Assembly (NCBI GenBank): GCA_022449455.1
Contig: JAKUPL010000014.1
Location: forward strand, 1-64,000
DNA: 64,000 nucleotides
Origin: Alcanivorax sp.
GTDB taxonomy: Bacteria > Pseudomonadota > Gammaproteobacteria > Pseudomonadales > Alcanivoracaceae
Reading direction: 5' to 3'
Shown here in pieces: positions 45,322-62,836 of this stretch. The position numbers and the translations under genes are program-made. Below the pieces are notes generated by a model. That model saw nothing but the letters and a program-made list of their open reading frames with translations. It did no database searches and was not told the DNA's origin. Within the stretch, counting starts at the first letter, position 1. Each line of letters begins with the position of its first letter.

Positions 45322-45390
45322 AAAGCACATGGCAGCTCAAAGCACTCGACTGATTACGATTGTTGGCAAATCCATAGCGAGGAGCCAGCC

Positions 45391-46242: not shown

Positions 46243-46452
46243 ATGGCCGAGATGGAAGATCGCTGGTTATCCGTAGACGAAATTGGCAAGCACCTCGGTG
46301 TCAGCAATGACACCGTGTACCGCTGGATCGACAAGCACGCAATGCCCGCCCACCGCATGGGGCGATTTTGGAAGTTCAAAAAAGTCGAAGTGGATGAGTG
46401 GGTCAAGGGCGGTGGAGCCGCCGAGACGAGCAAAGGTGAGCGTTCCGAATGA
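46243..46452 (+). CDS. Excisionase-type HTH protein leading the BREX operon
   Basis: 69 residues: WLSVDEIGKHLGVSNDTVYRWIDKHAMPAHRMGRFWKFKKVEVDEWV is a complete MerR-like excisionase/AlpA helix-turn-helix. Its stop overlaps the brxA start as ATGA, so it is the first cistron of the BREX operon and probably its regulator. The usual WYL-type BrxR regulator is not present here. AGGAAG precedes the ATG. Confidence 0.8.
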   Translation: MAEMEDRWLSVDEIGKHLGVSNDTVYRWIDKHAMPAHRMGRFWKFKKVEVDEWVKGGGAAETSKGERSE

Positions 46453-47063: not shown

Positions 47064-47671
47064 AAAAGGACATTGCCAAAATGCCGATGCAGGAGCGACT
47101 ACAGCACCTGTTTAGCGTGGTTTCCGGCCAGCGGTTCCTGAACAAACAGGGACTGGGTAATGAAGTGCCTTTCTTCATCTGTCCCTACCGGCCTGAAGAA
47201 GCGGTCGAGATGGAGCGTCTTCAGCGGCAGTTGGTTAACCGGCTGGCGCAGGCGGGCATCCGGATCCTGAGTATCAATCTGTACGACCTGGCCGTCGATA
47301 TTTTGAAAGAAAGAGACATCTGGGAGCAGGTGTTGGAGCTCGAGCCTACGGTTTCAAAGGATCAGCTGAAAGAACTGCTACAGGGAGTGCTGGACCCGGA
47401 AGCCCATTTGGTGCCCGCTATTGCGGCAAAACTCCAGTCCGTTGAGTTTGACGTGCTGTTTCTCTCAGGGGTGGGCGAGGTTTTCCCCTACATACGCTCC
47501 CATAACGTGCTCAACAACTTGCAGAGCACCGCCAAAGACCAGCCAACGGTGATGTTCTTTCCGGGGTCCTATACCCACTCGCTGGAAACCGGTGCATCGC
47601 TGGATCTGTTCGGCAGGCTGCATGACGACAAGTACTACCGTGCGTTCAACATCTTTCATTACGAAGCCTGA
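47060..47671 (+). CDS. brxB: BREX protein BrxB
   Basis: 203 residues, DUF1788 family: QERLQHLFSVVSGQRFLNKQGLGNEVPFFICPYRPEEAVEM, GIRILSINLYDLAVDIL, and VDVLFLSGVGEVFPYIRSHNVLNNL ending with FPGSY..LFGRLHDDKYYRAFNI. The start is TTG at 47060, overlapping the brxA stop. BrxB is essential for BREX activity, with biochemical role unclear. Confidence 0.93.
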   Translation: MKKDIAKMPMQERLQHLFSVVSGQRFLNKQGLGNEVPFFICPYRPEEAVEMERLQRQLVNRLAQAGIRILSINLYDLAVDILKERDIWEQVLELEPTVSKDQLKELLQGVLDPEAHLVPAIAAKLQSVEFDVLFLSGVGEVFPYIRSHNVLNNLQSTAKDQPTVMFFPGSYTHSLETGASLDLFGRLHDDKYYRAFNIFHYEA

Positions 47672-47714: not shown

Positions 47715-50700
47715 ATGACATTGAAGAATATTTTTCTAAAACCCGTTGATCGCCCCATTGAAGGCGTTATCAAAGCCGACGATGAAGCCAGTCTTCGCCT
47801 CGAAATTGAAGAATACGTACTGACCAACGAAGTCGAGAAACGCCTCGAAGAGTTCCTGGACGCCTACAATAACTACGAAGGGGCGAACGGAGTCTGGGTC
47901 TCCGGCTTCTTCGGCTCAGGTAAGTCGCACCTCCTCAAGATGCTGGCCCTTCTGCTTGAAAACCGGGAGATGGACGGTGCTACTACCCTGGACCTGTTCC
48001 TTCCCAAGTGCAGTGAGAATGAAATTCTCCGGGGCGACCTGAAGCGAGCTGTCTCAATTCCGGCGAAGAGCATTCTGTTCAACATCGACCAGAAAGCCGA
48101 TGTCATCAGCAAAACCCAAATCGATGCGCTTCTGGCCGTGTTCGTTAAAGTCTTCGACGAAATGTGCGGCTACTACGGCAAACAAGGGCACATCGCCCAG
48201 TTTGAGCGCGATCTGGACGGCCGTGGCCTGTACGAACAATTCAAAGGCGAGTACGAGGCCATCGCCGGTCGCCCCTGGCAGAAAGGCCGGGAGCAAGCCC
48301 TTCTGGAAGGCCCGAATATTGCCAAAGCCTACGCCGCTGTGACCGGTGGCGACCCGCAGTCGGCAGCGGGCATTCTGGACAAGTACCGCAGCGAATACCG
48401 CGTTTCAATTGAAGACTTCGCGGACAATGTGAATGCCTATATCGAGAAGCAGGCAAAAGAGGGTGGCCACAAAGAGTTCCGCCTGAACTTCTTTGTGGAC
48501 GAGGTCGGCCAGTACATTGCCGACAACACCAAGCTGATGACCAACCTGCAAACCATTGCCGAGAGCCTCGCCACCAAGTGTCGGGGCCGGGCCTGGATTA
48601 TCGTCACCGCCCAGGAAGAAATGAAAAACGTGGTTGGCGAAATGGGCAAGCAGCAGGGCAACGACTTCTCGAAAATTCAGGCACGGTTCAATAACCGCAT
48701 GAAGCTGTCCAGCGCGGACGTGGCGGAGGTTATCCAGAAGCGCCTGCTAACCAAGACCGAAGAAGGCGTCAATCAGCTGTCGGACGTCTACCACGCACAG
48801 GCGAACAACTTCAAAACCCTCTTTGACTTCGCGGATGGATCGGCTACCTACCGGAACTTCCGGGACAGGGACCACTTCATCCACAGCTACCCCTTCGTCC
48901 CCTACCAGTTCGCGCTGTTTCAATCGGCGATCCAGAACCTGTCGCAGCACAACGCCTTCGAGGGTAAGCACAGTTCCGTCGGTGAGCGCTCCATGCTAGG
49001 GGTTTTCCAGCAGGTGGCCATCCACATCGGCAACCATGAGGTGGGCCAGCTGGCCACCTTTGACCTGATGTTTGAAGGCATCCGCTCCGCACTGAAATCA
49101 CAAATACAGCGGGCGATTATTCAGGCCGAAAACCACCTCGATAATGCCTTCGCTATCCGGTTGCTGAAGGCCCTGTTCCTGGTCAAATATGTCAAGGAAT
49201 TCAAGCCCACGGTGCGCAACCTGTGCGTGCTGATGCTGGATGCCTTCGATCAGGATCTGCCGGCACTTCGCACCAAGGTCGAAGAAGCCCTGAGCCTTCT
49301 GGAGCAACAGACCTACATACAGCGCAACGGCGACCAGTACGAGTACCTGACGGATGAGGAAAAAGACGTCGAGCAGGAGATTAAGAACACAGAGGTTGAG
49401 TCATCGGACGTTGCGGACGAGCTGGAAAAGATCGTTTTCGACTTTGTTATAAAGCAGCGCAAAATCCGCTATGACGCCGGCTCTTCCCAGAACCAGGGGC
49501 AGGACTACTCTTTTTCGCGCAAACTGGATGATCGTCTGCATGGACGTGAATACGAGCTCTCGATCAATGTCATCAGCCCGTTCCACGAGCATACTGACAA
49601 CGAGCAAATGCTCCGTACAGCCTCAACCTATAAGGCGGACGAGCTGTTCGTGCTCATGCCGTCGGACGAGCGCCTGGTGCGGGATCTGCTCATGTTCAAG
49701 CGCACCGAGAAGTACATCAAGCAGAACATTTCCGTTACCCAGCAGGAAGCGGTTAAGCGGATCCTGAATGACAAGGGCTTCCAGAACCGTGAGCGCGAGG
49801 CCAGGCTCCGGCAGCAGGTTCAGACCCTCATTGGCAAGTCCAAGTTGCTCATTGGCGGCGCCGATGTGGAAGTGGCGAATGAGGACCCCCAGACCCGCAT
49901 TATTCGGGGCTTCCATGAGCTGATTTCACGGGCTTACCCCAACCTCCGCATGTTGCGCGGCGTTTCCTACACGGAAAACGACATCAGCAATTGCCTCAAC
50001 CGTACAGACGATGGCCTTTTCGGTAACGACGCCACAGCCCTGGCGGAATCCGAGCAGGAGGTGCTGGCGTTCATTCAGAGCAACAACCGGGGCGGTGTCC
50101 GCACCACCTTGAAGAGCCTGCTGGAAAAGTTCGAACGCAAACCCTACGGCTGGTATTACGCCGCGATTCTCTGCACCCTGGCCAACCTGTGTGCCCGCGG
50201 CAAGGTGGAGGTTCGTCTCGACGGTAATATCCTGGAGGACAGCGAGCTGGAGCGCGCCCTGCGTAACACACACGGCCACGGCAACGTGGTGCTGGAACCT
50301 CAGATTGAGTTCACCGCCTCTCAGGTCCGAGCCCTGAAATCGTTCTACGAGGACTTCTTCGATAGCCCGCCCCGCAGCAGCGAAGCCAAGGCCCTGGGCA
50401 AAGAGGCCGGCGAAGCCTTCCAGGACATGTACCACGACCTGGACCGGCGGATAGCGCAGGTCGACCAGTACCCGTTTCTCAATGCCTTGAAACCTGCCCT
50501 GGTGACGCTGAAAGAAGTCGCCGGAAAGCCCTACACCTGGCACCTGACGGAATTGGGCAAGCAGGAAGACCAACTTCTGGACCTGAAAGAGGATGTCATC
50601 GACCCCATTCGCAAGTTTATGGGCGGTTCACAAAAAGAAATTTACAAAGAGGCGCGCTCGCTCCTTCGGGATCAGGAAGACAACTTTATTTATGTGACCG

Positions 50701-51296
50701 GAGAAGAAATTCCCGAAATTAAATCCATACTCAATGATCCCGCCTGTTTCAGAGGTGACCGTATTCAGCAGCTCAAAGGGCAACTAGACAGCCTAAAAGA
50801 GTGCATCGATGAAAAAGTACAGCAGACCCGGTCCCGGGCGATAACGTCTCTTAAGGTCATGCAGGAGCGCATGCAAAGCATGGACGAATATCAGTCCCTG
50901 CCGGAACCTCGTCGAAAAGAGCTAGACAAGCCCTTCCTGGACCTTATAGATCACATTGAGCAGCGGCATTTGATTGCGGCCATAAATGACCGTCTCCGTT
51001 TTTTTGAAGACGAAGAGTATCAGAAAGTGCTCTCCAGAATGGTGGCGCTGGCCAATCAGAAATCAGCACCGTCAGATGATCCCGAGCAGCCCTCAGGTAG
51101 TCAGAATAAGGGCCAGAAAGGGGAGCAGTCTCACGAGGTCAAGGAATCGCCCGCCGACTACGTTCACACCCGCAACCTCCGTGTCACGTTCGACAAGGCC
51201 TGGCTGGCCGACGAGGGGGATGTGGACCGGTACCTGAATGCCCTGCGTGAGGCCCTTCTGGTTGAAATCCAGCAAGGCCGCAAGGTCCAGATTTAA
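47715..51296 (+). CDS. brxC: BREX ATPase BrxC
   Basis: A 1193-residue P-loop ATPase. Walker A is GFFGSGKS (residues 64-71) after NGVWVS; FFVDEVGQYI is the Walker B region near residue 262, followed by sensor-like WIIVTAQEEM. The C-terminal third is charged and helical. Length agrees with type I BrxC. It follows brxB after 43 bases with GGGAAAG as ribosome site. It is the hub of the BREX complex with PglX/PglZ in current models. Confidence 0.95.
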   Translation: MTLKNIFLKPVDRPIEGVIKADDEASLRLEIEEYVLTNEVEKRLEEFLDAYNNYEGANGVWVSGFFGSGKSHLLKMLALLLENREMDGATTLDLFLPKCSENEILRGDLKRAVSIPAKSILFNIDQKADVISKTQIDALLAVFVKVFDEMCGYYGKQGHIAQFERDLDGRGLYEQFKGEYEAIAGRPWQKGREQALLEGPNIAKAYAAVTGGDPQSAAGILDKYRSEYRVSIEDFADNVNAYIEKQAKEGGHKEFRLNFFVDEVGQYIADNTKLMTNLQTIAESLATKCRGRAWIIVTAQEEMKNVVGEMGKQQGNDFSKIQARFNNRMKLSSADVAEVIQKRLLTKTEEGVNQLSDVYHAQANNFKTLFDFADGSATYRNFRDRDHFIHSYPFVPYQFALFQSAIQNLSQHNAFEGKHSSVGERSMLGVFQQVAIHIGNHEVGQLATFDLMFEGIRSALKSQIQRAIIQAENHLDNAFAIRLLKALFLVKYVKEFKPTVRNLCVLMLDAFDQDLPALRTKVEEALSLLEQQTYIQRNGDQYEYLTDEEKDVEQEIKNTEVESSDVADELEKIVFDFVIKQRKIRYDAGSSQNQGQDYSFSRKLDDRLHGREYELSINVISPFHEHTDNEQMLRTASTYKADELFVLMPSDERLVRDLLMFKRTEKYIKQNISVTQQEAVKRILNDKGFQNREREARLRQQVQTLIGKSKLLIGGADVEVANEDPQTRIIRGFHELISRAYPNLRMLRGVSYTENDISNCLNRTDDGLFGNDATALAESEQEVLAFIQSNNRGGVRTTLKSLLEKFERKPYGWYYAAILCTLANLCARGKVEVRLDGNILEDSELERALRNTHGHGNVVLEPQIEFTASQVRALKSFYEDFFDSPPRSSEAKALGKEAGEAFQDMYHDLDRRIAQVDQYPFLNALKPALVTLKEVAGKPYTWHLTELGKQEDQLLDLKEDVIDPIRKFMGGSQKEIYKEARSLLRDQEDNFIYVTGEEIPEIKSILNDPACFRGDRIQQLKGQLDSLKECIDEKVQQTRSRAITSLKVMQERMQSMDEYQSLPEPRRKELDKPFLDLIDHIEQRHLIAAINDRLRFFEDEEYQKVLSRMVALANQKSAPSDDPEQPSGSQNKGQKGEQSHEVKESPADYVHTRNLRVTFDKAWLADEGDVDRYLNALREALLVEIQQGRKVQI

Positions 51297-51336
51297 GCAT
51301 GCCGAACCGTCTAACCGGTCGATGTTGGGGATAGCC

Positions 51337-53007
51337 ATGCACGAAGCCGAACAGGAAATCCGGGCGCTCATTCGCGGTGGCGAAAGCCTTGCCGTCGAGT
51401 TCAAGAGCGACGTCAAAAGCCTGCCGGACCGGGATCTGGTAGCCTCGGTGGTGGCCCTTGCAAACACCGAGGGCGGTGACCTGTTCCTGGGCGTTGAAGA
51501 CGATGGAACCCCGACCGGGCTGCATGCCAATCACCGCAACCTCGCCGGCCTGCCCGCTCTGATTGCCAACAAGACCATTCCCTCGCTGGCAGTGCGCGTT
51601 GAGGCCGTGGAGCTGGAAGGGCAACCTATTGCCAGAATTCAGGTGCCCAAGTCCCGGCAGCTGGTGTCCACCTCGGATGGCCTGCTGCAACGTCGGCGCC
51701 TGAGAATGGACGGCACTCCAGAGGCCGTGCCTTTCTACCCCCATGAGTTTGTTCAGCGCCAATCCAGCCTGGGGGTAACCGACCCCTCGGCCTTGCCGGT
51801 GGAAAACCTGGCGGTTGAAGACCTGGACCCGATTCAGCGCATCCGAATCCGCAACGCCATCAAGAAGTACGGCGGCGACCAGAGCCTGATGCCCCTGGCG
51901 GACGATGAGCTGGACGGCGCCCTGGGGCTGACTGTGAGCGTGGGAGGCCAGCGCCACCCCACCGTGGCGGGTTTGCTGCTGCTGGGGAACGAAATGCAGC
52001 TCCGGCAACACCTACCCTCCCACGAGGTAGCCTTCCAGGTCCTGCGCGGTACCGATGTCCTGGTCAATGAGTTCTACCGCAAACCGCTGCTGGAGACCTT
52101 TGAAGAGGTCGAAGTGCTGTTCCGGGCCCGGGTGGAAGAAGAGGAGATTCAGGTCGGGCTGTTTCGCGTGCCCATCCCCAACTTCGACCGCCGGGCCTTC
52201 CGGGAAGCCTTTGTGAACGCCCTGGTTCACCGCGATTACAGTGCCCTGGGCGCCGTACACGTCAAACTGGACGACGACGGCCTGAGCATCAGCAACCCGG
52301 GTGGATTTGTGGAAGGCGTCAACCTGGACAACCTGCTGGTGGCCGACCCCCGCTCCCGTAACCCATTACTGGCCGACATCATCAAGCGCATCGGCCTGGC
52401 CGAACGCACGGGCCGGGGCATCGACCGCATCTTCGAGGGCATGCTCCGCTACGGGCGTACCGCCCCTGACTACTCCATGTCATCCGCTCACACCGTCTCC
52501 GTGCGCATGAGCGCAGCAGACGCGGACGCCGAATTCCTGCGCATGATCGTCGAGCGCGAGGAACAGAGCGGTGCAGCCATGCCCATCGACAGCCTGATTA
52601 TTCTGTCCCGACTGCGTAATGAGCGGCGCTTAAGAACGGCGGACTTGGCCAAATCCGTACAAAAGCCCGAAACCGTGGTCCGGGGCACCCTGGAGAAACT
52701 GGTGGAAGCGGGCATGGTGGAAGCCCACGGCACCGGCAAGGGCCGCACCTACACCCTGAGCGCCAAGGTGTACCAGGGGGCGGGGCAAAAGGCCGCCTAT
52801 GTGCGCCAGGCGGGCTTCGATGCCATCCAGCAAGAGCAGATGGTGCTGAACTTCATCGATACCCACGGCAGCATCAAACGAGCGGATGCCGCCGATCTGT
52901 GCCATATCAGCCCTTTCCAGGCCACTCGGCTGCTCAACCGCTTGAAAGACAAGGGCGTGATACGCCCGGTGGGTCAGGGGAAGGGGACTCGATATGAGCG
53001 AAGTTGA
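51337..53007 (+). CDS. AlbA_2/HATPase accessory protein in BREX
   Basis: 556 residues. The N-terminal AlbA_2 (Schlafen-like, nucleic-acid binding) domain has LAVEFKSDVKSLPDRDLVASVVALANTEGGDLFLGVEDDG. A GHKL-ATPase-type domain follows: RRAFREAFVNALVHRDYSALGAVHVKLDDDGLSISNPGGF and RIGLAERTGRGIDRIFEGM. Two winged-helix domains end the chain (RTADLAKSVQKPETVVRGTLEKL, KRADAADLCHISPFQATRLLNRL). The start may be 51337 or 51322. It is an insertion relative to the minimal BREX gene order. The role could be regulation or a separate effector. Confidence 0.82.
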   Translation: MHEAEQEIRALIRGGESLAVEFKSDVKSLPDRDLVASVVALANTEGGDLFLGVEDDGTPTGLHANHRNLAGLPALIANKTIPSLAVRVEAVELEGQPIARIQVPKSRQLVSTSDGLLQRRRLRMDGTPEAVPFYPHEFVQRQSSLGVTDPSALPVENLAVEDLDPIQRIRIRNAIKKYGGDQSLMPLADDELDGALGLTVSVGGQRHPTVAGLLLLGNEMQLRQHLPSHEVAFQVLRGTDVLVNEFYRKPLLETFEEVEVLFRARVEEEEIQVGLFRVPIPNFDRRAFREAFVNALVHRDYSALGAVHVKLDDDGLSISNPGGFVEGVNLDNLLVADPRSRNPLLADIIKRIGLAERTGRGIDRIFEGMLRYGRTAPDYSMSSAHTVSVRMSAADADAEFLRMIVEREEQSGAAMPIDSLIILSRLRNERRLRTADLAKSVQKPETVVRGTLEKLVEAGMVEAHGTGKGRTYTLSAKVYQGAGQKAAYVRQAGFDAIQQEQMVLNFIDTHGSIKRADAADLCHISPFQATRLLNRLKDKGVIRPVGQGKGTRYERS

Positions 53008-53144: not shown

Positions 53145-54209
53145 ATGATAGAACGCCTTGAGCTCAGAAACTTCACGTCATTCAGAAAGCTGGAGATCAA
53201 TTTTTCGCCAAGAATCAACGTGATCATTGGCGAAAACGGGACCGGCAAAACCCATTTGCTTAAGGCAGCATATGGGCTGTGTTCCGGCGCTCCACTGTTT
53301 AAGAATCAACCTGACCTCGGTCAGAATGAGCTCGAAGTGGCGCTGACCACCAAATTCCTTCGCCTATTTATGCCTCTTGATGACAGGTTTGGAAAGCTGC
53401 ACGGCCAAGGCGTGACTGATCAGGCGTACCTTTTGGCCCAATTTGCCCATGAGAAAAAAGTCGCCGCAACCTTCTTTAACAACTCTAAAGCATTAGCCAT
53501 TCAGGATCGTACAAACTACGAAAAACACTTGGCTGAAGCGGTATTTATTCCCACCAAAGAAGTCCTCTCCTTTATGAAGGGGTTCAACAGCCTGTATGAG
53601 AAATATGGGCTCTCTTTCGATCAAACTTACCAGGACATTTGTCTCTCACTGGACCTCCCTGAAGTGCGCTCCCAGTTACTGCACGAGAAAGCAAAATGGG
53701 CTATGGCCGAAATTGAGAAAATATGCGGTGGTCGTTTTGTTTTTTATGGAGGAGGAAAGGTTACTTTTAAGACTGAGCATACGGAGTACTCTGCCAACTC
53801 CATTGCGGAGGGCTTTCGTAAAGCAGGAATGCTCTCACGCCTCCTGGAAACCGGAACAATCCAGCCCGGTGTTAGCGGTCCACTGTTCTGGGATGAGCCT
53901 GAATCTAATCTGAACCCCAAGCTGTTGAGGATCCTTGTTCAGATTCTGTTGGAGCTTTCCCGTAACGGCCAGCAGATAATTTTAGCGACTCACGATTATG
54001 TGTTGCTCAAGTGGTTCGACCTTCTAGCGGATCAAGGCAAAGAAGATCATGTCCGGTTCCATAGCCTGTATCGAGATCCTGATACTTCAGAAATTAAGGT
54101 CTCGTCCACTGACGATTACCATGACATCTCTCCCAATCCCATTGATGAGGCTTTCGGCTTTCTCATCAACCAAGAAATTGAAAATGATATGGGGGGGCTT
54201 GGTAAATGA
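53145..54209 (+). CDS. ABC/OLD-like AAA ATPase of an embedded two-gene module
   Basis: 354 residues. RLELRNFTSFRKLEINFSP opens an AAA_15/AAA_21 domain; Walker A is GENGTGKT (29-36). The second half has an ABC-like arrangement: GFRKAGMLSRLLETG, Walker B GPLFWDEPESNLNP (Asp-Glu near 250), and the H-loop LATHDYVLLKWFDLL. A gap of about 130 residues lies between. GC is clearly lower than brxC. The stop overlaps the start of the next gene as ATGA. Such single ATPases (as in PARIS AriA or Septu-like systems) act with a nuclease partner; this pairing is an inference. Confidence 0.85.
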   Translation: MIERLELRNFTSFRKLEINFSPRINVIIGENGTGKTHLLKAAYGLCSGAPLFKNQPDLGQNELEVALTTKFLRLFMPLDDRFGKLHGQGVTDQAYLLAQFAHEKKVAATFFNNSKALAIQDRTNYEKHLAEAVFIPTKEVLSFMKGFNSLYEKYGLSFDQTYQDICLSLDLPEVRSQLLHEKAKWAMAEIEKICGGRFVFYGGGKVTFKTEHTEYSANSIAEGFRKAGMLSRLLETGTIQPGVSGPLFWDEPESNLNPKLLRILVQILLELSRNGQQIILATHDYVLLKWFDLLADQGKEDHVRFHSLYRDPDTSEIKVSSTDDYHDISPNPIDEAFGFLINQEIENDMGGLGK

Positions 54210-54739
54210 AGGTTGTAGCTGCTGACGGCTTTGAGTTCCAGTTCACTGATGCACTGGATGCGTTTGTGTTCGATGAAAAAGATCGTTCAAAACCTACATT
54301 TCATGGCGCTCCCATGAAAGGGGTCGACATAGTCGCCGAGTTTGAAGAGGCCTATGTCTATGTGGAGTTGAAAGACTATGACGATCCGTCCATCTATGAT
54401 GTCCGCAATGCGGCAAACGATGAGCAGAAGAAAGCAAGGCAAGATAGTTTTAAATGGCTAAAAAACTACCTCAAATATAAATTCCGAGATTCTTATCTCT
54501 ATAGACACGCCGAACAGAAAGTGGATAAACCCGTCCATTATGTCTGTCTTCTCACTTTTGAGAATGCCTTAAATGGCCATATGCAAAAGTCATTGAAGCA
54601 GGAGCTACCTGTGGGGAAAGCTTCCTCGCGCTGGGTTCAGTCACTGGCCACCAGCTGTCATGTCGTCAACCTGCAGAAGTGGAACGAAAACTTTCCCAAA
54701 TGGCCTGTTACACGCTTGGCGGATGCTGAAGGAGCATAA
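54206..54739 (+). CDS. Putative PD-(D/E)XK-like partner of the ATPase
   Basis: 177 residues. DIVAEFEEAYVYVELKDYDD carries Asp41, then Glu54-Leu-Lys56: the D-x12-E-x-K spacing of PD-(D/E)XK nucleases in a predicted beta-hairpin. A helical stretch with conserved charge (NDEQKKARQDSFKWLKNYLKYKF) and VHYVCLLTFENAL follow. I do not recognise a named family. Start overlap (4 bases) with the ATPase shows coupled production; pglX begins 4 bases after its stop. Nuclease function is inferred from the motif alone. Confidence 0.6.
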   Translation: MKVVAADGFEFQFTDALDAFVFDEKDRSKPTFHGAPMKGVDIVAEFEEAYVYVELKDYDDPSIYDVRNAANDEQKKARQDSFKWLKNYLKYKFRDSYLYRHAEQKVDKPVHYVCLLTFENALNGHMQKSLKQELPVGKASSRWVQSLATSCHVVNLQKWNENFPKWPVTRLADAEGA

Positions 54740-54743
54740 TCAG

Positions 54744-57700
54744 ATGGAAACATCGAAACTTAAAAAATTCGCCCAATTCGCTCGCCGCAGCCTCCTCGAA
54801 CAGGTTACAGCCAAGCTCAAACTAGTACTCGCCGATGAGAGTCCCGCCCGGAGAGAAAGGCCACAAGCGATTAAAAAGCTGGAAGAGTCGGTAACCGACC
54901 AAGGCAAAGAGCAGATTATCGAACGGGTGGCCTATATCTGGTTCAACCGCTTCTGCGCCCTGCGTTTTATGGACGTGAATCGTTACAACCGCATTGGCAT
55001 TGTTTCACCTGCTGAGGGGCAGTTCCAGCCCGAGATCCTGGCTGATGCCAAAATGGGCCATATCGATGAAGAAATGGTGTCGGAGCCAACCCGCCAAAAG
55101 ATCTTCGCCCTGCTGGATGGCAAAACACCCAGTCAGGATCCGCAAGGGGAGGCCTATAGCCTACTGGTCGTAGCCGCCTGTAACTATTGGTACATCGCGA
55201 TGCCCTTCCTGTTCGAGCGCATTGACGATTACACCGAGCTTTTGATGCCAGATGACCTGCTATCTGGAAACTCGATCCTGGCCTATACCCGCGAAGCCAT
55301 GACGCCGGACGCCTGTGAGGATGTCGAGGTGATCGGCTGGCTGTATCAGTTCTATATCTCCGAGAAGAAAGACCAGGTATTCGCTGACCTCAAGAAAAAC
55401 AAGAAGATAACTCCGGACAATATTCCCGCTGCCACCCAGCTGTTCACGCCGCACTGGATTGTGCGTTATTTGGTGGAAAATTCACTGGGACGCCTTTGGA
55501 TGCTCAACCGGCCAAATTCTAGCTTGGCGGAGAAAATGGATTACTACATCAAGCCGGAAGAGCCCGAGACGGATTTCCTACGAGTTGGCAGCCCCGAAGA
55601 AATTAAGATCTGCGATCCAGCCTGTGGCTCGGGGCATATGCTGACTTATGCATTCGATCTTCTTTATGCCATATACGAGGAGGAAGGTTGCGAACCTACC
55701 GATATTCCGGTCAAGATTCTGACTCATAACCTGTATGGCATTGAGATCGACGAGCGTGCTGGCGAGCTGGCCGCCTTTGCACTAACCATGAAAGCACGAG
55801 CCAAGCAGCGCCGGTTTTTTCGAGTTCCAGTCCAGCCGAATGTTTGTGTGCTGGAGAATATCTACCTCGACGAAGGCGAACTTTCCGAGTACATCGATTT
55901 TGTCGGGCGGGACCTATTTACCGACTCCCTAATAGCCACCTTGCGTCAGTTCACGGAAGCCAAAAATTTTGGGTCTCTAATCCAGCCTGACGCCAATGAG
56001 TGGGGCGAACTACTTAGGTCACTTGAATCCAAAGACCTCTCTGGCCAGCTGTTCCTGAGTGGCACGCATGACAAAGTATTACAATCAATCAAACAGGCTG
56101 AGTTCTTATCCTCCACCTATCATGTCGTCGTTGCGAATCCCCCATACGCTGGCAGGAAGGGATTGAATAAAAAGTTATCCACCTGGCTTTACGACCATTA
56201 CCGGGATTACAGCTCAGATTTGTACGCTGCATTTGTAAAAAAGATTATGGATGCCACAAAAAAGGGCGGAGTGATTGGGTTGATGACTCCTTTCACTTGG
56301 ATGTTTATTAGTTCTTACATAGAATTACGAAGACATTTAACTAATAAAGCGCGTATTACGAGCTTGGTGAGACCAGAGTACCATGCATTTTTTGAGTCGG
56401 CATATGTTCCTATTTGTGCCTTTTCAATACAAAAGTCTCCTGCCTCAGATATCCCAGGTGTATTTGTCGATCTTAACGAATTTGTAGGAGCGAGCATTCA
56501 GCCACATTACTTCAGGGAGGCCATCAAAGACCCGTCTGTGCCTTGGCGCTTTACGGGTTCTTCGTCTGATTTTCAAAAAGTACCCGGTACTCCAATTGCA
56601 TATTGGCTCTCCAGCGAATCCTTACGTATCTTTGAGAAAAATCCGAGCTTGTCTTTGTTCGCCGAACCTAGGCAGGGACTTATTACGGGAGACAATGAGA
56701 GATTTCTAAGACAGTGGCCTGAAGTGTCAAACGAACGGGTGTTTCTGAATGCCAGATCAAGGAGTGAGGCCTCATCATCAGGTTGCCGCTGGTTCCCCCA
56801 CCATAAAGGCGGTGCGTTCAGAAAATGGTACGGCAATCACGAACATTTGGTGGATTGGGAAGATGATGGTTCAAGAATACGGAATTTTTTCGATGAAAAA
56901 GGAAAGTTAAGGTCGCGACCGCAGAATATAGAGTATTTTTTCCTCCCGGCCGTTACATGGACATCACTTACCGTCGGCTCGTTTAATGCCAGAATTTGTG
57001 CTGGAGGTTTCATTTACGATGCCAAAGGCCCTATGGCGAAGCCTAAGCGAGAAGGTGACCTACGTCTATTGACTGGACTGTTGAACTCTTCTTGCTCAAA
57101 TCTCTTTTTAAAGCTTCTGGCCCCGACCATGGATTATAATCAAGGCCCGGTTGGTCGTATTCCTTGGCCTGAAGTTACCTCCAATATTGAGGCGGCAATT
57201 GATTCTGCTGTCTCATCGCTTGTCAATCTAGCCAAATCCGACTGGGACGCCTACGAGACCTCTTGGGATTTCACCACGCTCCCGCTGCTCTCGCCTGACC
57301 AGCGGAGCGAAATGCTGGAAGCCAGCTATGCCACCCTCCGTACCCACTGGCGAGAGGTGACCCTGGAGATGCAGCGGTTGGAAGAAGAGAACAACCGTAT
57401 CTTTATCGAGGCCTACGGTCTGCAGGATGAGCTGACACCAGATGTACCGCTGGAGGAAGTCACTCTAACCTGTAACCCCCACTACCGTTACGGGAACAAC
57501 AAAAGTGAGAAGGAGATGGAGGCCCTTCTTCTGGCCGATACCATGCGCGAACTGGTCTCCTACGCCGTTGGATGTATGTTCGGTCGCTACGCTCTGGACA
57601 AGCCGGGCCTGATTCTCGCCAATCAGGGTGAGACTATCGCGGACTACCTGAAGCAGATCCCAGAGCCGAGCTTCCCGGCGGATGATGACAATGTCATCCC

Positions 57701-58259
57701 TATGCTCGATGGCGACTGGTTCACCGATGACATCACCGAGCGTTTTCGTGAATTCCTACGCATCGCCTTTGGCGAAGAACACTACGAAGAAAACCTCCGC
57801 TTTGTCGAGGAGGCGCTGGGTAAAGACATTCGCAAGTACTTCCTGAAGGACTTCTACAACGACCACGTGCGCCGTTACAAGAAGCGCCCCATCTATTGGC
57901 TGTTCTCTTCACCCAAGGGCTCATTCAACGCGCTGATCTACATGCACCGCTACCAGCCTCACACCGTGGGCACGGTGTTGGAGTACCTGCGGGATTTCAA
58001 AGACGAGAAGCTGAAAGCCCGGAAAAACCATCTGGAGGCCGTCAGTATCAGCGCCGGGGCCTCCCAGGGTGATAAGACCAAGGCCCTGAAAGAGATCGAG
58101 AAGATCAACAAGATCCTAGCCGAGTTGGATGACTACGAGCGGGATGTACTTTATCCCCTGGCTACCGAGCAGGTGGAAATAGATCTCGATGACGGGGTGA
58201 AGGCCAATTATCCGAAATTCGGCGAAGCTTTAAAGAAGATTACCGGGTTAAGCCAATGA
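54744..58259 (+). CDS. pglX: BREX adenine methyltransferase PglX
   Basis: A 1171-residue N6-adenine DNA methyltransferase that marks host sites in type I BREX. SAM motif I is CDPACGSGHML (Asp291), the catalytic NPPY is residues 465-468 (VVVANPPYAGRKG). GIEIDERAGELAAFAL is motif II-like. The region about 56100-57230 (residues 450-830), including the target-recognition part, is AT-richer than both ends. The start at 54744 (METSKLKKFAQFARR) has AAGGAG upstream; 54660 lies within the preceding gene. The stop overlaps pglZ as ATGA. Confidence 0.95.
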   Translation: METSKLKKFAQFARRSLLEQVTAKLKLVLADESPARRERPQAIKKLEESVTDQGKEQIIERVAYIWFNRFCALRFMDVNRYNRIGIVSPAEGQFQPEILADAKMGHIDEEMVSEPTRQKIFALLDGKTPSQDPQGEAYSLLVVAACNYWYIAMPFLFERIDDYTELLMPDDLLSGNSILAYTREAMTPDACEDVEVIGWLYQFYISEKKDQVFADLKKNKKITPDNIPAATQLFTPHWIVRYLVENSLGRLWMLNRPNSSLAEKMDYYIKPEEPETDFLRVGSPEEIKICDPACGSGHMLTYAFDLLYAIYEEEGCEPTDIPVKILTHNLYGIEIDERAGELAAFALTMKARAKQRRFFRVPVQPNVCVLENIYLDEGELSEYIDFVGRDLFTDSLIATLRQFTEAKNFGSLIQPDANEWGELLRSLESKDLSGQLFLSGTHDKVLQSIKQAEFLSSTYHVVVANPPYAGRKGLNKKLSTWLYDHYRDYSSDLYAAFVKKIMDATKKGGVIGLMTPFTWMFISSYIELRRHLTNKARITSLVRPEYHAFFESAYVPICAFSIQKSPASDIPGVFVDLNEFVGASIQPHYFREAIKDPSVPWRFTGSSSDFQKVPGTPIAYWLSSESLRIFEKNPSLSLFAEPRQGLITGDNERFLRQWPEVSNERVFLNARSRSEASSSGCRWFPHHKGGAFRKWYGNHEHLVDWEDDGSRIRNFFDEKGKLRSRPQNIEYFFLPAVTWTSLTVGSFNARICAGGFIYDAKGPMAKPKREGDLRLLTGLLNSSCSNLFLKLLAPTMDYNQGPVGRIPWPEVTSNIEAAIDSAVSSLVNLAKSDWDAYETSWDFTTLPLLSPDQRSEMLEASYATLRTHWREVTLEMQRLEEENNRIFIEAYGLQDELTPDVPLEEVTLTCNPHYRYGNNKSEKEMEALLLADTMRELVSYAVGCMFGRYALDKPGLILANQGETIADYLKQIPEPSFPADDDNVIPMLDGDWFTDDITERFREFLRIAFGEEHYEENLRFVEEALGKDIRKYFLKDFYNDHVRRYKKRPIYWLFSSPKGSFNALIYMHRYQPHTVGTVLEYLRDFKDEKLKARKNHLEAVSISAGASQGDKTKALKEIEKINKILAELDDYERDVLYPLATEQVEIDLDDGVKANYPKFGEALKKITGLSQ

Positions 58260-60754
58260 GTGACCGTATTAGCCAGGCTTTGAGCCGACTGTTCGATAAG
58301 CACCGAATCGTGTTTTGGTACGACGCCAAGCAAGAGCTACGCGGTGACTTTGAAGCTGTTTCCATTCCGAACGTCGAAAAGCTGGAAATCGCCAACAACG
58401 AGTACGGCCTGAAATATCGCATCCTGCGGGAGTCACCGGAACAGAAATTCTTGCTGTACAAGGAGGGGCCACAACCGGAGGATCTGCACAACTGGCTGCT
58501 GGACGTACAGCTGGCCCACGGCGAGTTCCGGACCGACCAGGTGGCCATCTGGCTATCCGAACTCGAGTTGGGTCTGGAGTTTGCCGAGGTGGCCCAGGCT
58601 CACGCGGAGTTTTTCCAGGCGATCAAGCGCAAGGAGGCGTTGAAGAAATTACTGAAGCCGGACGATACCGCCGGGCAGCTGCGCCTGAAGATGCTGGCCG
58701 TGTGTGCCGGTAGTGAGCCCCGTATGGACTCGGTGGTGGAAACCCTGCTGCAGCAACTGGCGGAAGACCGTGATGATGGTATTCGGCTGATTGAGCGTTG
58801 TGGTCTGGACAGCTTCCTGTGGGAACAACTGACCCGTTTCTACGGCTACGAGGCCAGTGAACCTAGCCTGCGCGACTTTGTGATCGAGCTGTTCAAATCC
58901 TGCTACGCCATGGGTACCGATGGCGAGGTCAAACTGACCGGCGATGCCCTGGTGTTCCTCAAGCGCTGGAAAGACAGCCGGCAGTTCGAGCAGGGGTTTG
59001 AAACCCTGTCTGCCGAATGTGCCGAGGTGCTGGGTATTGAGCAGGATCTCGGTAAACGGGACTTCCGGGACCTGGTTGAGCTGGATTACTTCCGGCTAAT
59101 CGACCAGAAGATTATCAGTGACCTGGTGCGGGCGGTGGTAGACCGCACGGTCACTAGCGGCGATGTGGCACTGTGGGTGCGGCAGCGGCGCCAGGGCCAC
59201 TGGTACGGAGAGTTCCGCCACCTGTACGAGGCTATTGAGTTTGCGGCCCGTTTTGTCCAGATGCTGGGTGAGGCTCGTCTCACCATGGACAGCGTCTCCG
59301 ACGGTGTTCAGAGATACAGCCGCTCCTGGTATCAGTTGGATCAGCTCTACCGCAAGTTTACCTACCATGTGCGTATGTCCGGCCAGGCATCGTTAATGGG
59401 CGAGCTCAGTGAGCAGGTGGAGAACCTGTATTCCAACAACTATCTGCTCAAGCTGGGCGACGGCTTCCAGGTCCACGTGGACGCCGCGCCGCGCTGGGAG
59501 GCCTATCCGGTCGTTCAGCAAAAGGCCTTTTTCGAGCACTGGGTTCGCCCGTACCTGCGCAAGGATAAACGGATCTGCGTGATCATTTCCGACGCCATGC
59601 GCTACGAGATTGGTGACGAGCTGCTGGGCCTTATCCGGCAGGAAGATCGCTACAGCGCGGAGCTTGAGCCGGCACTCTCGACCCTCCCCAGCTATACCCA
59701 GCTCGGTATGGCGGCGCTGCTGCCCAACAAGTCCTTGGCGATCGCCGACAATGATACCGGCACGGTACTGTTGGATGGCCAAAGCTCACAGGGTACGGTC
59801 AATCGTACCAAAATCCTGCAGGCGGCCCTGGATGGGCGGGGCCAGGCCGTCAAGGCGGAGGATTTTATGCAGCTCAACCGGGAAGACAGCCGTGAGCTGC
59901 TCAAGGGTAATGATGTGCTGTACATCTACCACAACCGCATCGATCACACTGGCGACAAGATGCACTCAGAGGGGCAGGCCTTTGAAGCCGCAGAACAAAC
60001 CCTGGATGACCTGATTCGTCTGATCAAGAAGCTCACGGCGGCCAACGCCAATAACCTGCTGATCACCGCTGACCATGGCTTTATTTACCAGAACCGTGAG
60101 CTGGATGAGAGTGACTTCCTGGGCGACGCCGTTTCTGGCGATGATATTCGCTACCGGGACCGTCGGTTCGTGCTGGGTAAGGGGTTGTCCGCCTCTCCGG
60201 CGTTCCATCACTTCTCGTCTGAGCAGCTTGGGCTGGATGGCGATATGGAAGTGCAGATTCCCAAGTCCATCAACCGACTGCGCCTTAAAGGCTCTGGTAG
60301 CCGCTTTGTGCATGGCGGCGCATCCCTTCAGGAAGTTGTGATTCCGGTCCTGAAGGTCAACAAGAAGCGCCAGAGTGATGTCAGTGCCGTTGAAGTGGAC
60401 ATCCTGCGTGGGGCCAGCTCGGTGATCACTTCCGGCCAACTGGCCGTCACCTTGTATCAGTCCGGACCGGTTACCGAGAAAGTACAGCCTCGCCACCTGC
60501 GGGCCGGAATTTACACCCAGTCAGGGGAGTTGATTTCGGACAGTCACGAACTGTCGTTTGACCTGACCTCGGAGAACCCCCGCGAGCGGGAGCTTCAGGT
60601 ACGCTTTGTGCTGAGCCGCAAGGCGGACGAGGCAAACGGCCAGGAAGTCTTCTTAAAGCTGGAAGAACAGCACGCCGGCACCTCTCACTACAAGGAATAC
60701 AAGTCGCTCAGGTATTTGATGCGGCGGTCCTTTACCAGCGATTTTGATTTCTGA
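58256..60754 (+). CDS. pglZ: BREX phosphatase-like protein PglZ
   Basis: 832 residues, type I PglZ. The N-terminus (MSDRISQALSRLFDKHRIVFWYDAKQEL) is typical; the alkaline-phosphatase-like PglZ domain has RICVIISDAMRYEIGDELLGLI near residue 440 and ITADHGFIYQNREL near residue 602, with YHNRIDHTGDK between. Required for both methylation and restriction in BREX. Overlaps pglX by 4 bases. Confidence 0.95.
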   Translation: MSDRISQALSRLFDKHRIVFWYDAKQELRGDFEAVSIPNVEKLEIANNEYGLKYRILRESPEQKFLLYKEGPQPEDLHNWLLDVQLAHGEFRTDQVAIWLSELELGLEFAEVAQAHAEFFQAIKRKEALKKLLKPDDTAGQLRLKMLAVCAGSEPRMDSVVETLLQQLAEDRDDGIRLIERCGLDSFLWEQLTRFYGYEASEPSLRDFVIELFKSCYAMGTDGEVKLTGDALVFLKRWKDSRQFEQGFETLSAECAEVLGIEQDLGKRDFRDLVELDYFRLIDQKIISDLVRAVVDRTVTSGDVALWVRQRRQGHWYGEFRHLYEAIEFAARFVQMLGEARLTMDSVSDGVQRYSRSWYQLDQLYRKFTYHVRMSGQASLMGELSEQVENLYSNNYLLKLGDGFQVHVDAAPRWEAYPVVQQKAFFEHWVRPYLRKDKRICVIISDAMRYEIGDELLGLIRQEDRYSAELEPALSTLPSYTQLGMAALLPNKSLAIADNDTGTVLLDGQSSQGTVNRTKILQAALDGRGQAVKAEDFMQLNREDSRELLKGNDVLYIYHNRIDHTGDKMHSEGQAFEAAEQTLDDLIRLIKKLTAANANNLLITADHGFIYQNRELDESDFLGDAVSGDDIRYRDRRFVLGKGLSASPAFHHFSSEQLGLDGDMEVQIPKSINRLRLKGSGSRFVHGGASLQEVVIPVLKVNKKRQSDVSAVEVDILRGASSVITSGQLAVTLYQSGPVTEKVQPRHLRAGIYTQSGELISDSHELSFDLTSENPRERELQVRFVLSRKADEANGQEVFLKLEEQHAGTSHYKEYKSLRYLMRRSFTSDFDF

Positions 60755-60766
60755 GGGTTATAGCCA

Positions 60767-62836
60767 ATGAGTACGCTTGACCAAAAGATCAACGAACACT
60801 TCCCCGGGTTGGTGGTGCGCAAAGACCTGGTGAAAACGGTCAAGGGCAACGCCATTGTCCCCTCATATGTGCTGGAGTATCTGCTCGGCCAGTACTGCGC
60901 CACCAACGACGAGGCCACGATTCAGACTGGTATCGAGACGGTCAAGGAGATTCTGGCCAAGCACTATGTCCACCGGAACGAGGCCGGGTTGGTGCGCTCG
61001 AATATCAAGGAAAAAGGGCGCTACAAGGTCATCGACAAGATCAGTGTGGCCCTGAATGAGAAGACGGACGCCTATGAAGCGCAGTTTTCCAACCTGGGGA
61101 TCAAGAAGGTATTGGTGGACTCGGGAACCGTGAAGGCCCACCCCAAACTGTTGGTGAGCGGTGTCTGGTGCATCGCGGACATCGAATACGTATTTTCTGA
61201 AGACCAGAACGTCAGCCCCTGGATCCTGTCCACCCTCAAGCCGATTCAGCTATCGCACTTCGACTACGACGCCTACGTTGCCGCGCGGCAGCAGTTCAGC
61301 ACCGATGAGTGGATTGACCTGCTGATACAGAGTATCGGCTTTAACCCGGAGATGTTCGGACGGCGCAGCAAGCTGACGCAACTGGTCCGATTGATTCCGT
61401 TCTGCGAGCGGAACTACAACCTTATTGAACTTGGCCCCAAGGGGACGGGTAAATCCCACGTTTACTCTGAGTTCTCACCCCATGGGATCCTGGTATCCGG
61501 CGGTGAAGTCACCGTACCCAAGCTGTTTGTGAATAACTCCAGCGGCAAGATCGGCCTGGTGGGCTACTGGGATTGCGTGGCCTTCGACGAGTTCGCCGGC
61601 AAGCAGAAACGCGTCGATAAAGCACTGGTCGACATCATGAAGAACTACATGGCCAACAAGTCCTTCTCCAGGGGCGTGGAAACCCTGGGCGCCGAGGCGT
61701 CCATGGTGTTCGTGGGGAACACCCGGCATACCGTGCCTTACATGCTGAAGCATTCGGACCTGTTCGATGAGCTGCCGGACAAGTTCTACGATTCTGCCTT
61801 TCTGGACCGAATCCACTTCTACATCCCCGGGTGGGAGGTCGATATCATCCGGGGCGAGATGTTCTCCGACGGCTATGGCTTCGTGGTGGACTACCTTGCA
61901 GAAATCCTGCGCTCGATGCGGAACTACGATTATTCCGATCAGTACCGGGAGCACTTTACCCTTTCTTCGGATATCTCGACCCGTGACCGGGACGGTATCA
62001 ACAAGACCTTTTCCGGCTTGATGAAGATCCTGTTTCCCCAGGGCGGAGCAACCAGGGATGAGGTTGAAGAAGTGCTGCGTTTTGCCATCGAGGGGCGCAA
62101 GCGGGTCAAGGACCAGTTACAGCGGATTGATACCACCTACGGCGAAGTACGCTTTTCCTATCAGGACCAACAAGGCCAGGAAATACTGGTCACGACACTT
62201 GAGGAAGAAGAGTACCCGGGTTACTACCATCAGACAGTGTCTACTCCTGATGACGGGGGGTTAGAGCCCGAGCCAGCAGCAGACAAAGGTGGCGAGCCCA
62301 AAGAGCCCCGCGCCTCCGAACCCGTACTGGAGGAAAAGCACCTGACTTTCCAGGAGAACCAAAAGGGTATCTCATTCGACGGCTTGTTTGGCGCCTACCT
62401 GAAAGGCGCCAGCAGGATCACCGTCACAGACCCCTACATCCGGCTTTTCTACCAGATCCGCAATTTCATGGAGTTTCTCGAGGCCATCGTAAAGAACAAG
62501 GCCGAAGAGGATGAAGTGGCGGTTCACCTCGTCACCGTCCGGGACGAGTTCAAGGGTGACCTGCAAGACGAGAGTTTTGAAAAGATCCAGGAATCCGCTC
62601 GCACTGTGGGCATCGACTTCACCTGGGAGTTTGATGAAAGCGGCACCATTCACGCCCGCCATATCGTCACGGACCACGGCTGGAAGATATCACTGGATCG
62701 AGGGCTGGATATCTTCCAGCACTACGAGATGAATGAAGCCTTCGCGTTTGCCAACCGGTTGCAGCAGTTTCGGTCTAGCAAGGCCTTTGAGGTGACGTTT
62801 ATTAAACAAAAGCCGAATGGAACTGAGGGGGAGTAA
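60767..62836 (+). CDS. brxL: BREX Lon-like protein BrxL
   Basis: 689 residues. MSTLDQKINEHFPGLVVRKDLVKTVKGNAIVPSYVLEYLLGQY is the BrxL N-terminus; Walker A is GPKGTGKS (223-230), Walker B region WDCVAFDEFAG, and the Lon-like region reads GVETLGAEASMVFVGNTRHTVP. The C-terminal Lon-protease-like domain follows an acidic linker (about 490-525). BrxL is an AAA+ ring on DNA that ends the type I operon. Twelve bases follow pglZ. Confidence 0.95.
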   Translation: MSTLDQKINEHFPGLVVRKDLVKTVKGNAIVPSYVLEYLLGQYCATNDEATIQTGIETVKEILAKHYVHRNEAGLVRSNIKEKGRYKVIDKISVALNEKTDAYEAQFSNLGIKKVLVDSGTVKAHPKLLVSGVWCIADIEYVFSEDQNVSPWILSTLKPIQLSHFDYDAYVAARQQFSTDEWIDLLIQSIGFNPEMFGRRSKLTQLVRLIPFCERNYNLIELGPKGTGKSHVYSEFSPHGILVSGGEVTVPKLFVNNSSGKIGLVGYWDCVAFDEFAGKQKRVDKALVDIMKNYMANKSFSRGVETLGAEASMVFVGNTRHTVPYMLKHSDLFDELPDKFYDSAFLDRIHFYIPGWEVDIIRGEMFSDGYGFVVDYLAEILRSMRNYDYSDQYREHFTLSSDISTRDRDGINKTFSGLMKILFPQGGATRDEVEEVLRFAIEGRKRVKDQLQRIDTTYGEVRFSYQDQQGQEILVTTLEEEEYPGYYHQTVSTPDDGGLEPEPAADKGGEPKEPRASEPVLEEKHLTFQENQKGISFDGLFGAYLKGASRITVTDPYIRLFYQIRNFMEFLEAIVKNKAEEDEVAVHLVTVRDEFKGDLQDESFEKIQESARTVGIDFTWEFDESGTIHARHIVTDHGWKISLDRGLDIFQHYEMNEAFAFANRLQQFRSSKAFEVTFIKQKPNGTEGE

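What the first reader, a model, noticed from the sequence alone, without database searches (positions are those of the whole stretch)
53145..54739. Embedded ATPase plus PD-(D/E)XK-like pair inside BREX
Between brxC and pglX a low-GC, translationally coupled pair encodes an ABC/OLD-like ATPase (Walker A residues 29-36, Walker B near 250) and a 177-residue protein with D41-x12-E54-L-K56. Neither is a core BREX gene. Many phage defences pair one such ATPase with a nuclease (PARIS, Septu, Gabija), but I recognise no named system with this partner. It could be an independent abortive-infection module hitch-hiking in the BREX operon, or a BREX-linked nuclease.
Basis: partly seen in the sequence, partly recalled or inferred. 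Interest (0 to 1): 0.75.

Follow-up and report, generated by a model that had tools for sequence, protein, structure and literature searches.

The report
ATPase-nuclease defence pair inside BREX
Two overlapping genes inside a bacterial anti-virus operon encode an ATPase and a small nuclease-like protein; the pair belongs to an already catalogued but little-studied defence family, and comparing relatives suggests that its sensing and cutting parts are repeatedly shuffled between bacteria.

Summary
53145-54209 encodes a 354-aa ABC ATPase and 54206-54739 a 177-aa protein, overlapping by 4 bp, at 46-47% GC, inside a type 1 BREX operon. They lie between brxC and pglX, with a Schlafen-type gene directly upstream. 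The small protein is modelled (pLDDT 88) with a restriction-endonuclease-like fold, and D41/E54/K56 are near-invariant in 68 aligned family members.

The pair is not unnamed. PADLOC-DB lists it as HEC-02 (389 and 223 bits). OLD-ABC ATPase plus PD-(D/E)XK dyads in BREX are published, and a tested system of the same design is WonAB (abortive infection, translation arrest). Relatives sit in BREX-1, other BREX types, Hma, or apart from these, so this is a portable module and not a BREX subunit.

What I found in no paper I searched: the ATPase is a mosaic. Its insert (about residues 41-215) and its C-terminal tail are exchanged separately. Tail and nuclease covary (rho 0.83); insert and nuclease hardly (0.26). 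On the ATPase-head tree the nuclease type changes 8 times, on the tail tree once. Boundaries are visible in DNA comparisons. This points to sensor and effector cassettes assembled by recombination. Function and substrate are untested.

The parts
53145..54209 (+). HEC-02A: 354-aa OLD/ABC-type ATPase gene
   Evidence: PADLOC PDLC04213 HEC-02A 5e-117, residues 1-350; AlphaFold pLDDT 86.6, pTM 0.88; closest solved folds PtuA, Rad50, SMC heads
53229..53252 (+). Walker A, residues 29-36 GENGTGKT
   Evidence: K35 67 of 67 aligned A proteins
53265..53789 (+). Exchangeable insert, about residues 41-215, proposed sensor
   Evidence: Identity of residues 141-210 to the window is 57-99% in one set of relatives and 15-36% in the rest, without following B; blastn match to L029 stops at 53266 and resumes at 53884. 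Sensor role is inference.
53805..53822 (+). ABC-signature-like AEGFRK, residues 221-226
53886..53906 (+). Walker B/D-loop FWDEPES, residues 248-254
   Evidence: D250, E251 67 of 67
53991..53993 (+). H-switch His283
   Evidence: 66 of 67
54015..54206 (+). C-terminal tail, residues 291-354, proposed docking surface for the nuclease
   Evidence: Residues 307-354 covary with B, rho 0.83; replaced together with B. Docking is inference.
54206..54209 (+). ATGA overlap, translational coupling of A and B
   Evidence: 65 of 68 loci share it
54206..54739 (+). HEC-02B: 177-aa PD-(D/E)XK-like nuclease gene
   Evidence: PADLOC PDLC04229 HEC-02B 5e-67; AlphaFold pLDDT 87.8, pTM 0.85; VIA rows 1-19 restriction-endonuclease-fold enzymes
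54326..54373 (+). Putative active site D41-x12-E54-L-K56
   Evidence: D41 67/68, E54 68/68, K56 67/68
46449..47063 (+). brxA (host operon)
47060..47671 (+). brxB (host operon)
47715..51296 (+). brxC (host operon)
51238..53007 (+). Schlafen/AlbA_2 + HATPase_c_4 + winged-helix gene, separate accessory directly upstream (start codon not settled)
54744..58259 (+). pglX (host operon), probable start 4 nt after B ends
   Evidence: the longest open frame starts at 54660
58256..60754 (+). pglZ (host operon)
60767..62836 (+). brxL (host operon)
   Evidence: matches the annotated BrxL of NZ_CP023670.1

Best explanation
The pair is a self-contained two-gene defence module, HEC-02, of the OLD-ABC-ATPase plus PD-(D/E)XK-nuclease class, carried inside a BREX-1 operon as a backup layer. 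It most likely works like WonAB. The ATPase dimerises and binds ATP (motifs and fold shown; dimer inferred). Its insert between Walker A and the signature senses an infection cue (inferred from its exchange). The small nuclease docks on the ATPase's C-terminal tail (inferred from covariation and co-exchange). On activation the nuclease cuts nucleic acid and stops the infection, probably by sacrificing the cell (inferred by analogy). The substrate is unknown; RNA/tRNA is slightly favoured because WonB arrests translation and leaves DNA intact. It does not need BREX to exist, but its coupled position suggests it covers phages that defeat BREX (inferred).
For: Near full-length HEC-02A/B profile matches. 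PD-(D/E)XK-like model of B: pLDDT 87.8; VIA rows 1-19 are, as I know them, all nucleases of that fold, best Z 6.9 over 123 residues; catalytic triad near-invariant in 68. A resembles PtuA (Foldseek 2.2e-14; Z 20.1 over 313 residues) as well as SMC and Rad50 heads, with motifs intact. A and B with a 4-bp overlap in 65 of 68 loci. Tail-B rho 0.83 in 32 BREX-1 loci, 0.31 across the junction inside A; in the 25 loci with undivided pglX, tail-B 0.88 against 0.42 for B with the start of the adjacent PglX. Module also beside a BREX-2 pglX, beside another PglX family, in Hma, and with no BREX gene found nearby. WonAB: both genes and both active sites needed, WonB predicted to sit on dimerised WonA C-terminal extensions, translation arrest (PMC12137116).
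Against: No functional data on HEC-02 were seen. VIA Z is below 8, Foldseek found no PDB match at E<=0.001 for B and its top match has TM 0.39; from VIA row 20 on, unrelated entries mix in. So the nuclease fold rests on agreement of the top hits plus the motif; I did not see catalytic residues superposed. In OLD proteins the domain inserted in the ATPase is a dimerisation domain (PMC10568477 passage), so the insert here need not be a sensor. The tail lies next to B on the DNA, so co-transfer could reflect linkage as well as binding. WonA/WonB sequences were not at hand, so homology to them is untested.
Confidence: 0.7

Rival explanations
1. BREX-dependent effector: B is an extra nuclease recruited by the BREX complex, with A as loader, and does nothing without BREX.
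For: Tight position beside brxC and pglX in BREX-1; 39 of 54 genome loci have BREX genes in the fetched stretch.
Against: 12 of the 17 genomes with HEC-02B in an evenly drawn phylum sample of 398 have no BREX gene in the fetched stretch (profiles were built from BREX-1 proteins and some contigs are short). Also in Hma and beside housekeeping genes. In L079, a MAG, all six BREX genes are found while only 66 codons of B are left. A and B types barely follow the brxC tree.
Confidence: 0.13
2. Direct restriction: A clamps foreign DNA like Rad50/SMC and B degrades that DNA, without killing the cell.
For: SMC/Rad50-like head; closest folds of B include the DNA cutters BspD6I and FokI.
Against: B is only 177 aa and shows no Pfam domain at E<=1, so no separate DNA-binding domain was recognised; the tested analogue WonAB leaves DNA intact (PMC12137116).
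Confidence: 0.25
3. Simple toxin-antitoxin pair: A neutralises toxic B.
For: Two coupled genes; A matches the Pfam family 'AAA domain, putative AbiEii toxin, Type IV TA system'.
Against: In WonAB the ATPase is needed for toxicity, which rules out simple sequestration there (PMC12137116).
Confidence: 0.08
4. The mosaic pattern is an artefact: fast-evolving insert, or chimeric metagenome assemblies.
For: Many loci are MAGs; L026 is a metagenomic viral contig. Over all 63 complete pairs, residues 206-290 correlate with B at 0.59, so the contrast is weaker at long range.
Against: Insert is 96% identical where B is 40% (L026/L031) and 27-29% where B is 89% (L035 with L036, L031, L032), so rate alone fails. 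All four insert x B combinations occur in records not labelled MAG (L034, L069, L030, L062). L084/L088 come from assemblies rated 100% complete, in 6 and 20 contigs.
Confidence: 0.05

Closest known systems
HEC-02 (PADLOC-DB v2.0.0 candidate system)
   Same: Both proteins match its models over nearly full length; a relative in the same order sits inside Hma, where the family gets its name
   Different: Here the host operon is BREX-1, not Hma. The source preprint (Payne et al. 2024) is not in the library and was not read.
WonAB (WASA-1 prophage; PMC12137116)
   Same: OLD-type ABC ATPase plus small PD-(D/E)XK nuclease, two-gene operon; variation in inserts and C-terminal extension noted for its wider family
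   Different: Sequence relationship not tested; WonB is 16.1 kDa; WonAB is prophage-borne; the word HEC does not occur in its main text
OLD-ABC + PD-(D/E)XK dyads in BREX/BR systems (PMC12839542)
   Same: Same class, same place, proposed as backup effectors; 594 taxa with HNH, PD-(D/E)XK or PIN partners taken together
   Different: Its main text does not contain HEC, mosaic or recombination
Septu / retron PtuAB
   Same: PtuA is among the closest solved ATPase folds, tied with SMC and Rad50 heads
   Different: PtuB is an HNH nuclease (recalled; retron HNH entries); B here is PD-(D/E)XK-like
PARIS AriAB
   Same: OLD-ABC ATPase plus separate nuclease; A scores 72 bits to AriA
   Different: AriB is a Toprim nuclease (PMC12839542); no such match for B

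Membership tests
HEC-02 | ATPase matching HEC-02A model | tested here: met
   PDLC04213 389 bits, residues 1-350 of 354, profile 1-335/337
HEC-02 | Adjacent small partner matching HEC-02B model | tested here: met
   PDLC04229 223 bits, residues 1-172 of 177; 4-bp overlap
HEC-02 | Found embedded in Hma (origin of the name) | tested here: inconclusive
   This copy is in BREX; relative L098 lies between HmaB and HmaC
WonAB-type OLD-ABC + REase | ABC ATPase with Walker A, signature, Walker B, H-loop | tested here: met
WonAB-type OLD-ABC + REase | Partner with PD-(D/E)XK fold and active site | tested here: met
   fold agreement is moderate (Z 6.9)
WonAB-type OLD-ABC + REase | Nuclease docks on ATPase C-terminal extension | tested here: inconclusive
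   Tail-B covariation and co-exchange; no complex could be modelled here
WonAB-type OLD-ABC + REase | Sequence homology to WonA and WonB | not tested
   Their sequences were not obtained
WonAB-type OLD-ABC + REase | Abortive infection by translation arrest | not testable with these tools
   Needs experiment
PARIS | Toprim AriB partner | tested here: not met
   Partner has no Pfam match at E<=1 and only HEC-02B matches (8 models) in PADLOC at E<=1
Septu | HNH PtuB partner | tested here: not met
   No HNH match; PD-(D/E)XK-like model
Gabija | GajA with Toprim plus GajB helicase | tested here: not met
   354-aa ATPase with no Toprim family in its Pfam list; next genes are HEC-02B and pglX
BREX core | Required, universally linked BREX component | tested here: not met
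   5 of 17 PglX-bearing genomes (E<=1e-50) in a 398-genome sample have HEC-02B, and 5 of 17 HEC-02B genomes have such a PglX

The most novel reading that the evidence does not exclude
HEC-02 is a combinatorial immune module. Homologous recombination at conserved blocks inside the ATPase gene (flanking the insert near Walker A and Walker B, and just after the H-switch) swaps the sensor insert and the tail-plus-nuclease cassette independently, much as restriction systems swap target-recognition domains, and does so inside BREX operons where pglX's central region also appears to be swapped. New trigger/effector pairings are thus made without breaking the ATPase-nuclease interface.
Probability: 0.6. 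Interest if true: 0.6.

Novelty: new member of a known kind. Interest (0 to 1): 0.45.

Why it matters
The pair itself is catalogued, so finding it here is ordinary. The useful part is that natural recombinants mark where the proposed sensor ends and the nuclease cassette begins in a class of ATPase-nuclease defences related in design to WonAB, PARIS and Septu. Matched natural chimeras such as L026/L031 (same head, different tail and nuclease) or the window and L029 (same nuclease type, different insert) give ready controls. That makes 'what does the insert sense?' and 'does the tail choose the effector?' directly testable.

Tried and rejected
Rejected as family assignments: PARIS, Septu, Gabija (partner type not met). 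Rejected: BREX subunit.

Led nowhere: PDB sequence search with the partner profile gave 0 hits at E<=10. Viral fold library had no match at E<=0.001. Phage records had no B match at 1e-5; the E. coli genome DNA search had none. The paper search for HEC-02 gave one unrelated paper; HEC-02A had 0 occurrences in the 30 of 31 papers listed. Papers and the exchange: searches were seen as listings; word finds in PMC12839542, PMC12137116, PMC12409358 and PMC10568477 showed no account of it; PMC12904381, listed, was not opened. This covers only open-licence PMC papers. The ABC-ATPase survey (doi 10.1093/nar/gkaa726) is not held. PD-T4-4 membership was not tested because its sequences were not at hand.

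Results that cut against the reading: tail data reject the exact B topology by AU (p 0.0003, delta lnL 37; p-SH 0.27), though far less than the head topology (434), and B data reject the tail topology (delta lnL 159, p-AU 0.0001; p-SH 0.12). Insert-B correlation is small but not zero (0.26, Mantel p 0.003). Eight changes on the head tree is fewer than the shuffled mean of 11.6 but above the shuffled minimum of 7, so head and B are not fully independent. My first neighbourhood control (B with PglX start, 0.29) included 7 of 32 loci whose PglX N half lies upstream of A; without them (25 loci) it is 0.42 against tail-B 0.88.

Rows dropped: L050 (same contig as L099) from the sets of 63, 67 and 68. 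Trees used 35 of 63 complete pairs, chosen as insert types I9, I12, I13, I14 with B types B5 or B6. Correlations used 32 loci having all four genes. Six of 74 loci lacked one intact A or B ORF and were left out of the overlap count.

Full report
WHAT IS THERE. The window holds a type 1 BREX operon: brxA 46449, brxB 47060, brxC 47715, pglX 54744, pglZ 58256, brxL 60767. Between brxC and pglX lie three accessory genes: a Schlafen/HATPase_c_4/winged-helix protein (51238-53007), then the pair of the finding. The ATPase gene (53145-54209) and the partner gene (54206-54739) overlap by ATGA, and pglX probably starts 4 nt after the partner ends. GC is 47.0% and 45.9%, lower than brxC, pglX and pglZ as wholes, but like a central part of pglX (45.7%).

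NAME. PADLOC-DB v2.0.0 identifies the ATPase as HEC-02A (389 bits, residues 1-350) and the partner as HEC-02B (223 bits, residues 1-172). 'HEC' means Hma-embedded candidate (PMC12988326 and PMC10855318, passages only). A relative in the same order does sit between HmaB and HmaC of an Hma locus (L098). Two PADLOC labels look swapped: PDLC04146 'HEC-02B' matches the ATPase and PDLC04145 'HEC-02A' matches a small partner.

FOLDS. With 19 sequences in the alignment the partner models at pLDDT 87.8, pTM 0.85. Foldseek's best PDB match is the small subunit of BspD6I (E 0.004, probability 0.99, TM 0.39). In the VIA second look, rows 1-19 are all, as I know these enzymes, restriction-endonuclease-fold nucleases (BspD6I, Can2, Cdn1, BstEII, FokI, Card1, EcoO109I, McrBC), best Z 6.9, rmsd 3.9, 123 residues; from row 20 on, unrelated entries mix in. 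Z below 8 is not decisive alone, but the top of the list is uniform and the motif fits. In 68 aligned partners, the window's included, E54 and K92 are 68/68, D41 67 (one N), K56 67 (one R), D23 67 (one X). The ATPase models at pLDDT 86.6, pTM 0.88. Its best folds are PtuA of Septu and retrons (Foldseek 2.2e-14; Z 20.1 over 313 residues), SMC heads (Z 20.6) and Rad50; rows within 1 Z are tied. Walker A and B residues are 67/67, His283 66/67.

WHERE ELSE. A genome-collection scan with a 7-sequence partner alignment gave 54 loci. 39 of 54 have at least one BREX gene in the fetched stretch and 15 have none, several of the latter cut by contig ends. In 16 of 54, brxC overlaps the ATPase gene by 4 bp. 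This scan favours close relatives. In an evenly drawn set of 398 genomes of the phylum, 17 have HEC-02B; 5 of these 17 have BREX genes beside it and 12 have none in the fetched stretch. BREX was sought with profiles started from this window's proteins, so distant types could be missed. The same-sized draw has 17 genomes with PglX at E<=1e-50, 5 shared. In the order, 4 of 293 genomes have HEC-02B. Outside BREX the pair lies, for example, between guaB and guaA (L086), beside an oligopeptide transporter (L075), near a PEP-synthase-like gene and glycyl-tRNA synthetase (L096), and beside a TIR-NACHT gene (L089). Plasmids carry it in BREX-1 (NZ_CP023670.1) and next to a BREX-2 pglX (NC_008757.1); a Sulfuricystis plasmid has the ATPase with no small partner annotated after it. 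Of 68 loci with one A and one B ORF, 65 overlap by exactly 4 bp. In L079, a MAG, six BREX genes are found while only the end of B is left. So this is a portable two-gene module that BREX-1 often carries in a coupled slot.

THE MOSAIC. Against the window, relatives fall into groups in which parts of the ATPase disagree. Where B is 81-83% identical (L029, L030, L033, L035), residues 141-210 are only 22-31% identical, but the tail 291-354 is 81-86%. Where B is 38-42% (L026, L063, L068, L069), residues 141-210 are 77-89% but the tail is only 48-54%. Of 63 complete pairs, 32 fall into two insert types and two B types in all four combinations: I9xB5 11, I9xB6 14, I12xB5 1, I12xB6 6; the other 31 are of other types.

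In 32 BREX-1 loci, Spearman correlations of pairwise identity are: tail (307-354) with B 0.83, insert with B 0.26, residues 206-290 with B 0.17, residues 206-290 with tail 0.31, insert with 206-290 0.84. As a control for simple neighbourhood I used B with the first 100 residues of PglX. Seven of the 32 loci have a split PglX whose N half lies upstream, so the fair set is 25 loci: B with PglX start 0.42, tail with B 0.88, residues 206-290 with tail 0.36. Thus the strong link crosses the A/B gene border, while a weak link lies inside gene A. Over all 63 pairs the contrast is weaker: 206-290 with B 0.59, tail with B 0.85, insert with B 0.27.

On 35 loci, B data reject the head tree (delta lnL 1791, p-AU 7e-4) and head data reject the B tree (707, p-AU 9e-10). 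Tail data fit the B tree far better (37) than the head tree (434), although exact identity of topologies is still rejected by AU. By parsimony B type changes 8 times on the head tree (shuffled mean 11.6, minimum 7), once on the tail tree, and 7 times on a 28-locus brxC tree made in fast mode (shuffled mean 9.6). Tree error can inflate such counts.

The DNA shows the boundaries. L026 and L031 match at 90% from brxB to about codon 290-300 of A, are 50-61% identical over codons 301-351, have no blastn match over most of B, and match again at 87% from the end of B into pglX. L084 and L088 lose and regain the match at closely similar places. The window and L029 match up to 53266 (codon 41), have no match over the insert, and resume at 53884 (codon 247). 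In the same comparisons a central part of pglX (about 55.9-57.3 kb) is unmatched against L028 and L029, as if exchanged. All four insert x B combinations are present in records not labelled as MAGs: L034, L069, L030, L062.

HOW IT LIKELY WORKS. Shown: coupled ATPase and PD-(D/E)XK-like genes with conserved active-site residues; separate exchange of insert and of tail plus nuclease. Inferred: the insert senses infection, the tail holds the nuclease, ATP binding or hydrolysis gates it, and activation aborts infection. In OLD proteins the inserted domain dimerises (PMC10568477, passage), so the insert may have that role instead of or besides sensing. The reading is strengthened by WonAB, where ATPase and nuclease residues are both needed, WonB is predicted to bind dimerised C-terminal extensions of WonA, WonB toxicity needs WonA, DNA stays intact and translation stops (PMC12137116; abstract, sections 7 and 9 and passages read). 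[quoted passage not shown]

WHAT IS KNOWN. OLD-ABC ATPases paired with PD-(D/E)XK, HNH or PIN nucleases instead of Toprim are reported in 594 taxa of BREX and BR systems as backup effectors (PMC12839542; abstract, section 35 part 1 and passages). So the finding is a member of a known kind. I found no account of the cassette exchange in the papers searched, a search limited to open-licence PMC papers; the preprint that defines HEC was not readable.

VERDICT. Observation confirmed; interpretation partly supported; novelty: new member of a known kind. Interest comes mainly from the mosaic, which gives natural chimeras to test what the insert does and what the tail binds.

Noticed in passing
51238-53007: Schlafen AlbA_2 + HATPase_c_4 + winged-helix protein embedded between brxC and the pair; the same slot is filled in L028, L029, L039. 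PMC12839542 describes this architecture in at least 1017 taxa.
   Followed up: partly
55950-57250: Central part of pglX is low in GC (45.7%) and has no blastn match to L028 or L029 although both sides do, as if its recognition region had been exchanged.
   Followed up: partly
L034, L059, L061, L062, L071, L072, L081: PglX is split into two genes of about 600 codons, and HEC-02A overlaps the end of the first half by 4 bp; in L059, L062, L072 and L081 about 3 kb lies between the pair and the second half; in L061 the second half is not in the stretch.
   Followed up: partly
41227-42468 and 45160-45993: Integrase and MobI genes near the border where GC falls from about 65-69% to 53%: the BREX operon appears to lie on an integrated mobile element. 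A Sulfuricystis plasmid (L102) also has mobI upstream of a HEC-02A-like gene.
   Followed up: no
PADLOC PDLC04146 and PDLC04145: Labels appear swapped: the 'HEC-02B' model PDLC04146 matches the ATPase and the 'HEC-02A' model PDLC04145 matches the small partner.
   Followed up: partly
L079 and L078 (both MAGs): Decaying copies: L079 keeps BREX genes but only 66 codons of B and no A; L078 has a complete A and a B of 74 codons in which only about the last 61 residues match well.
   Followed up: partly
L086: The pair sits between guaB and guaA, two GTP-synthesis genes, in the same direction.
   Followed up: no
54189-54209: The conserved last residues of A (MGGLGK) are encoded by a G-rich stretch just before B's start codon, so their conservation may partly reflect B's ribosome-binding site.
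   Followed up: no
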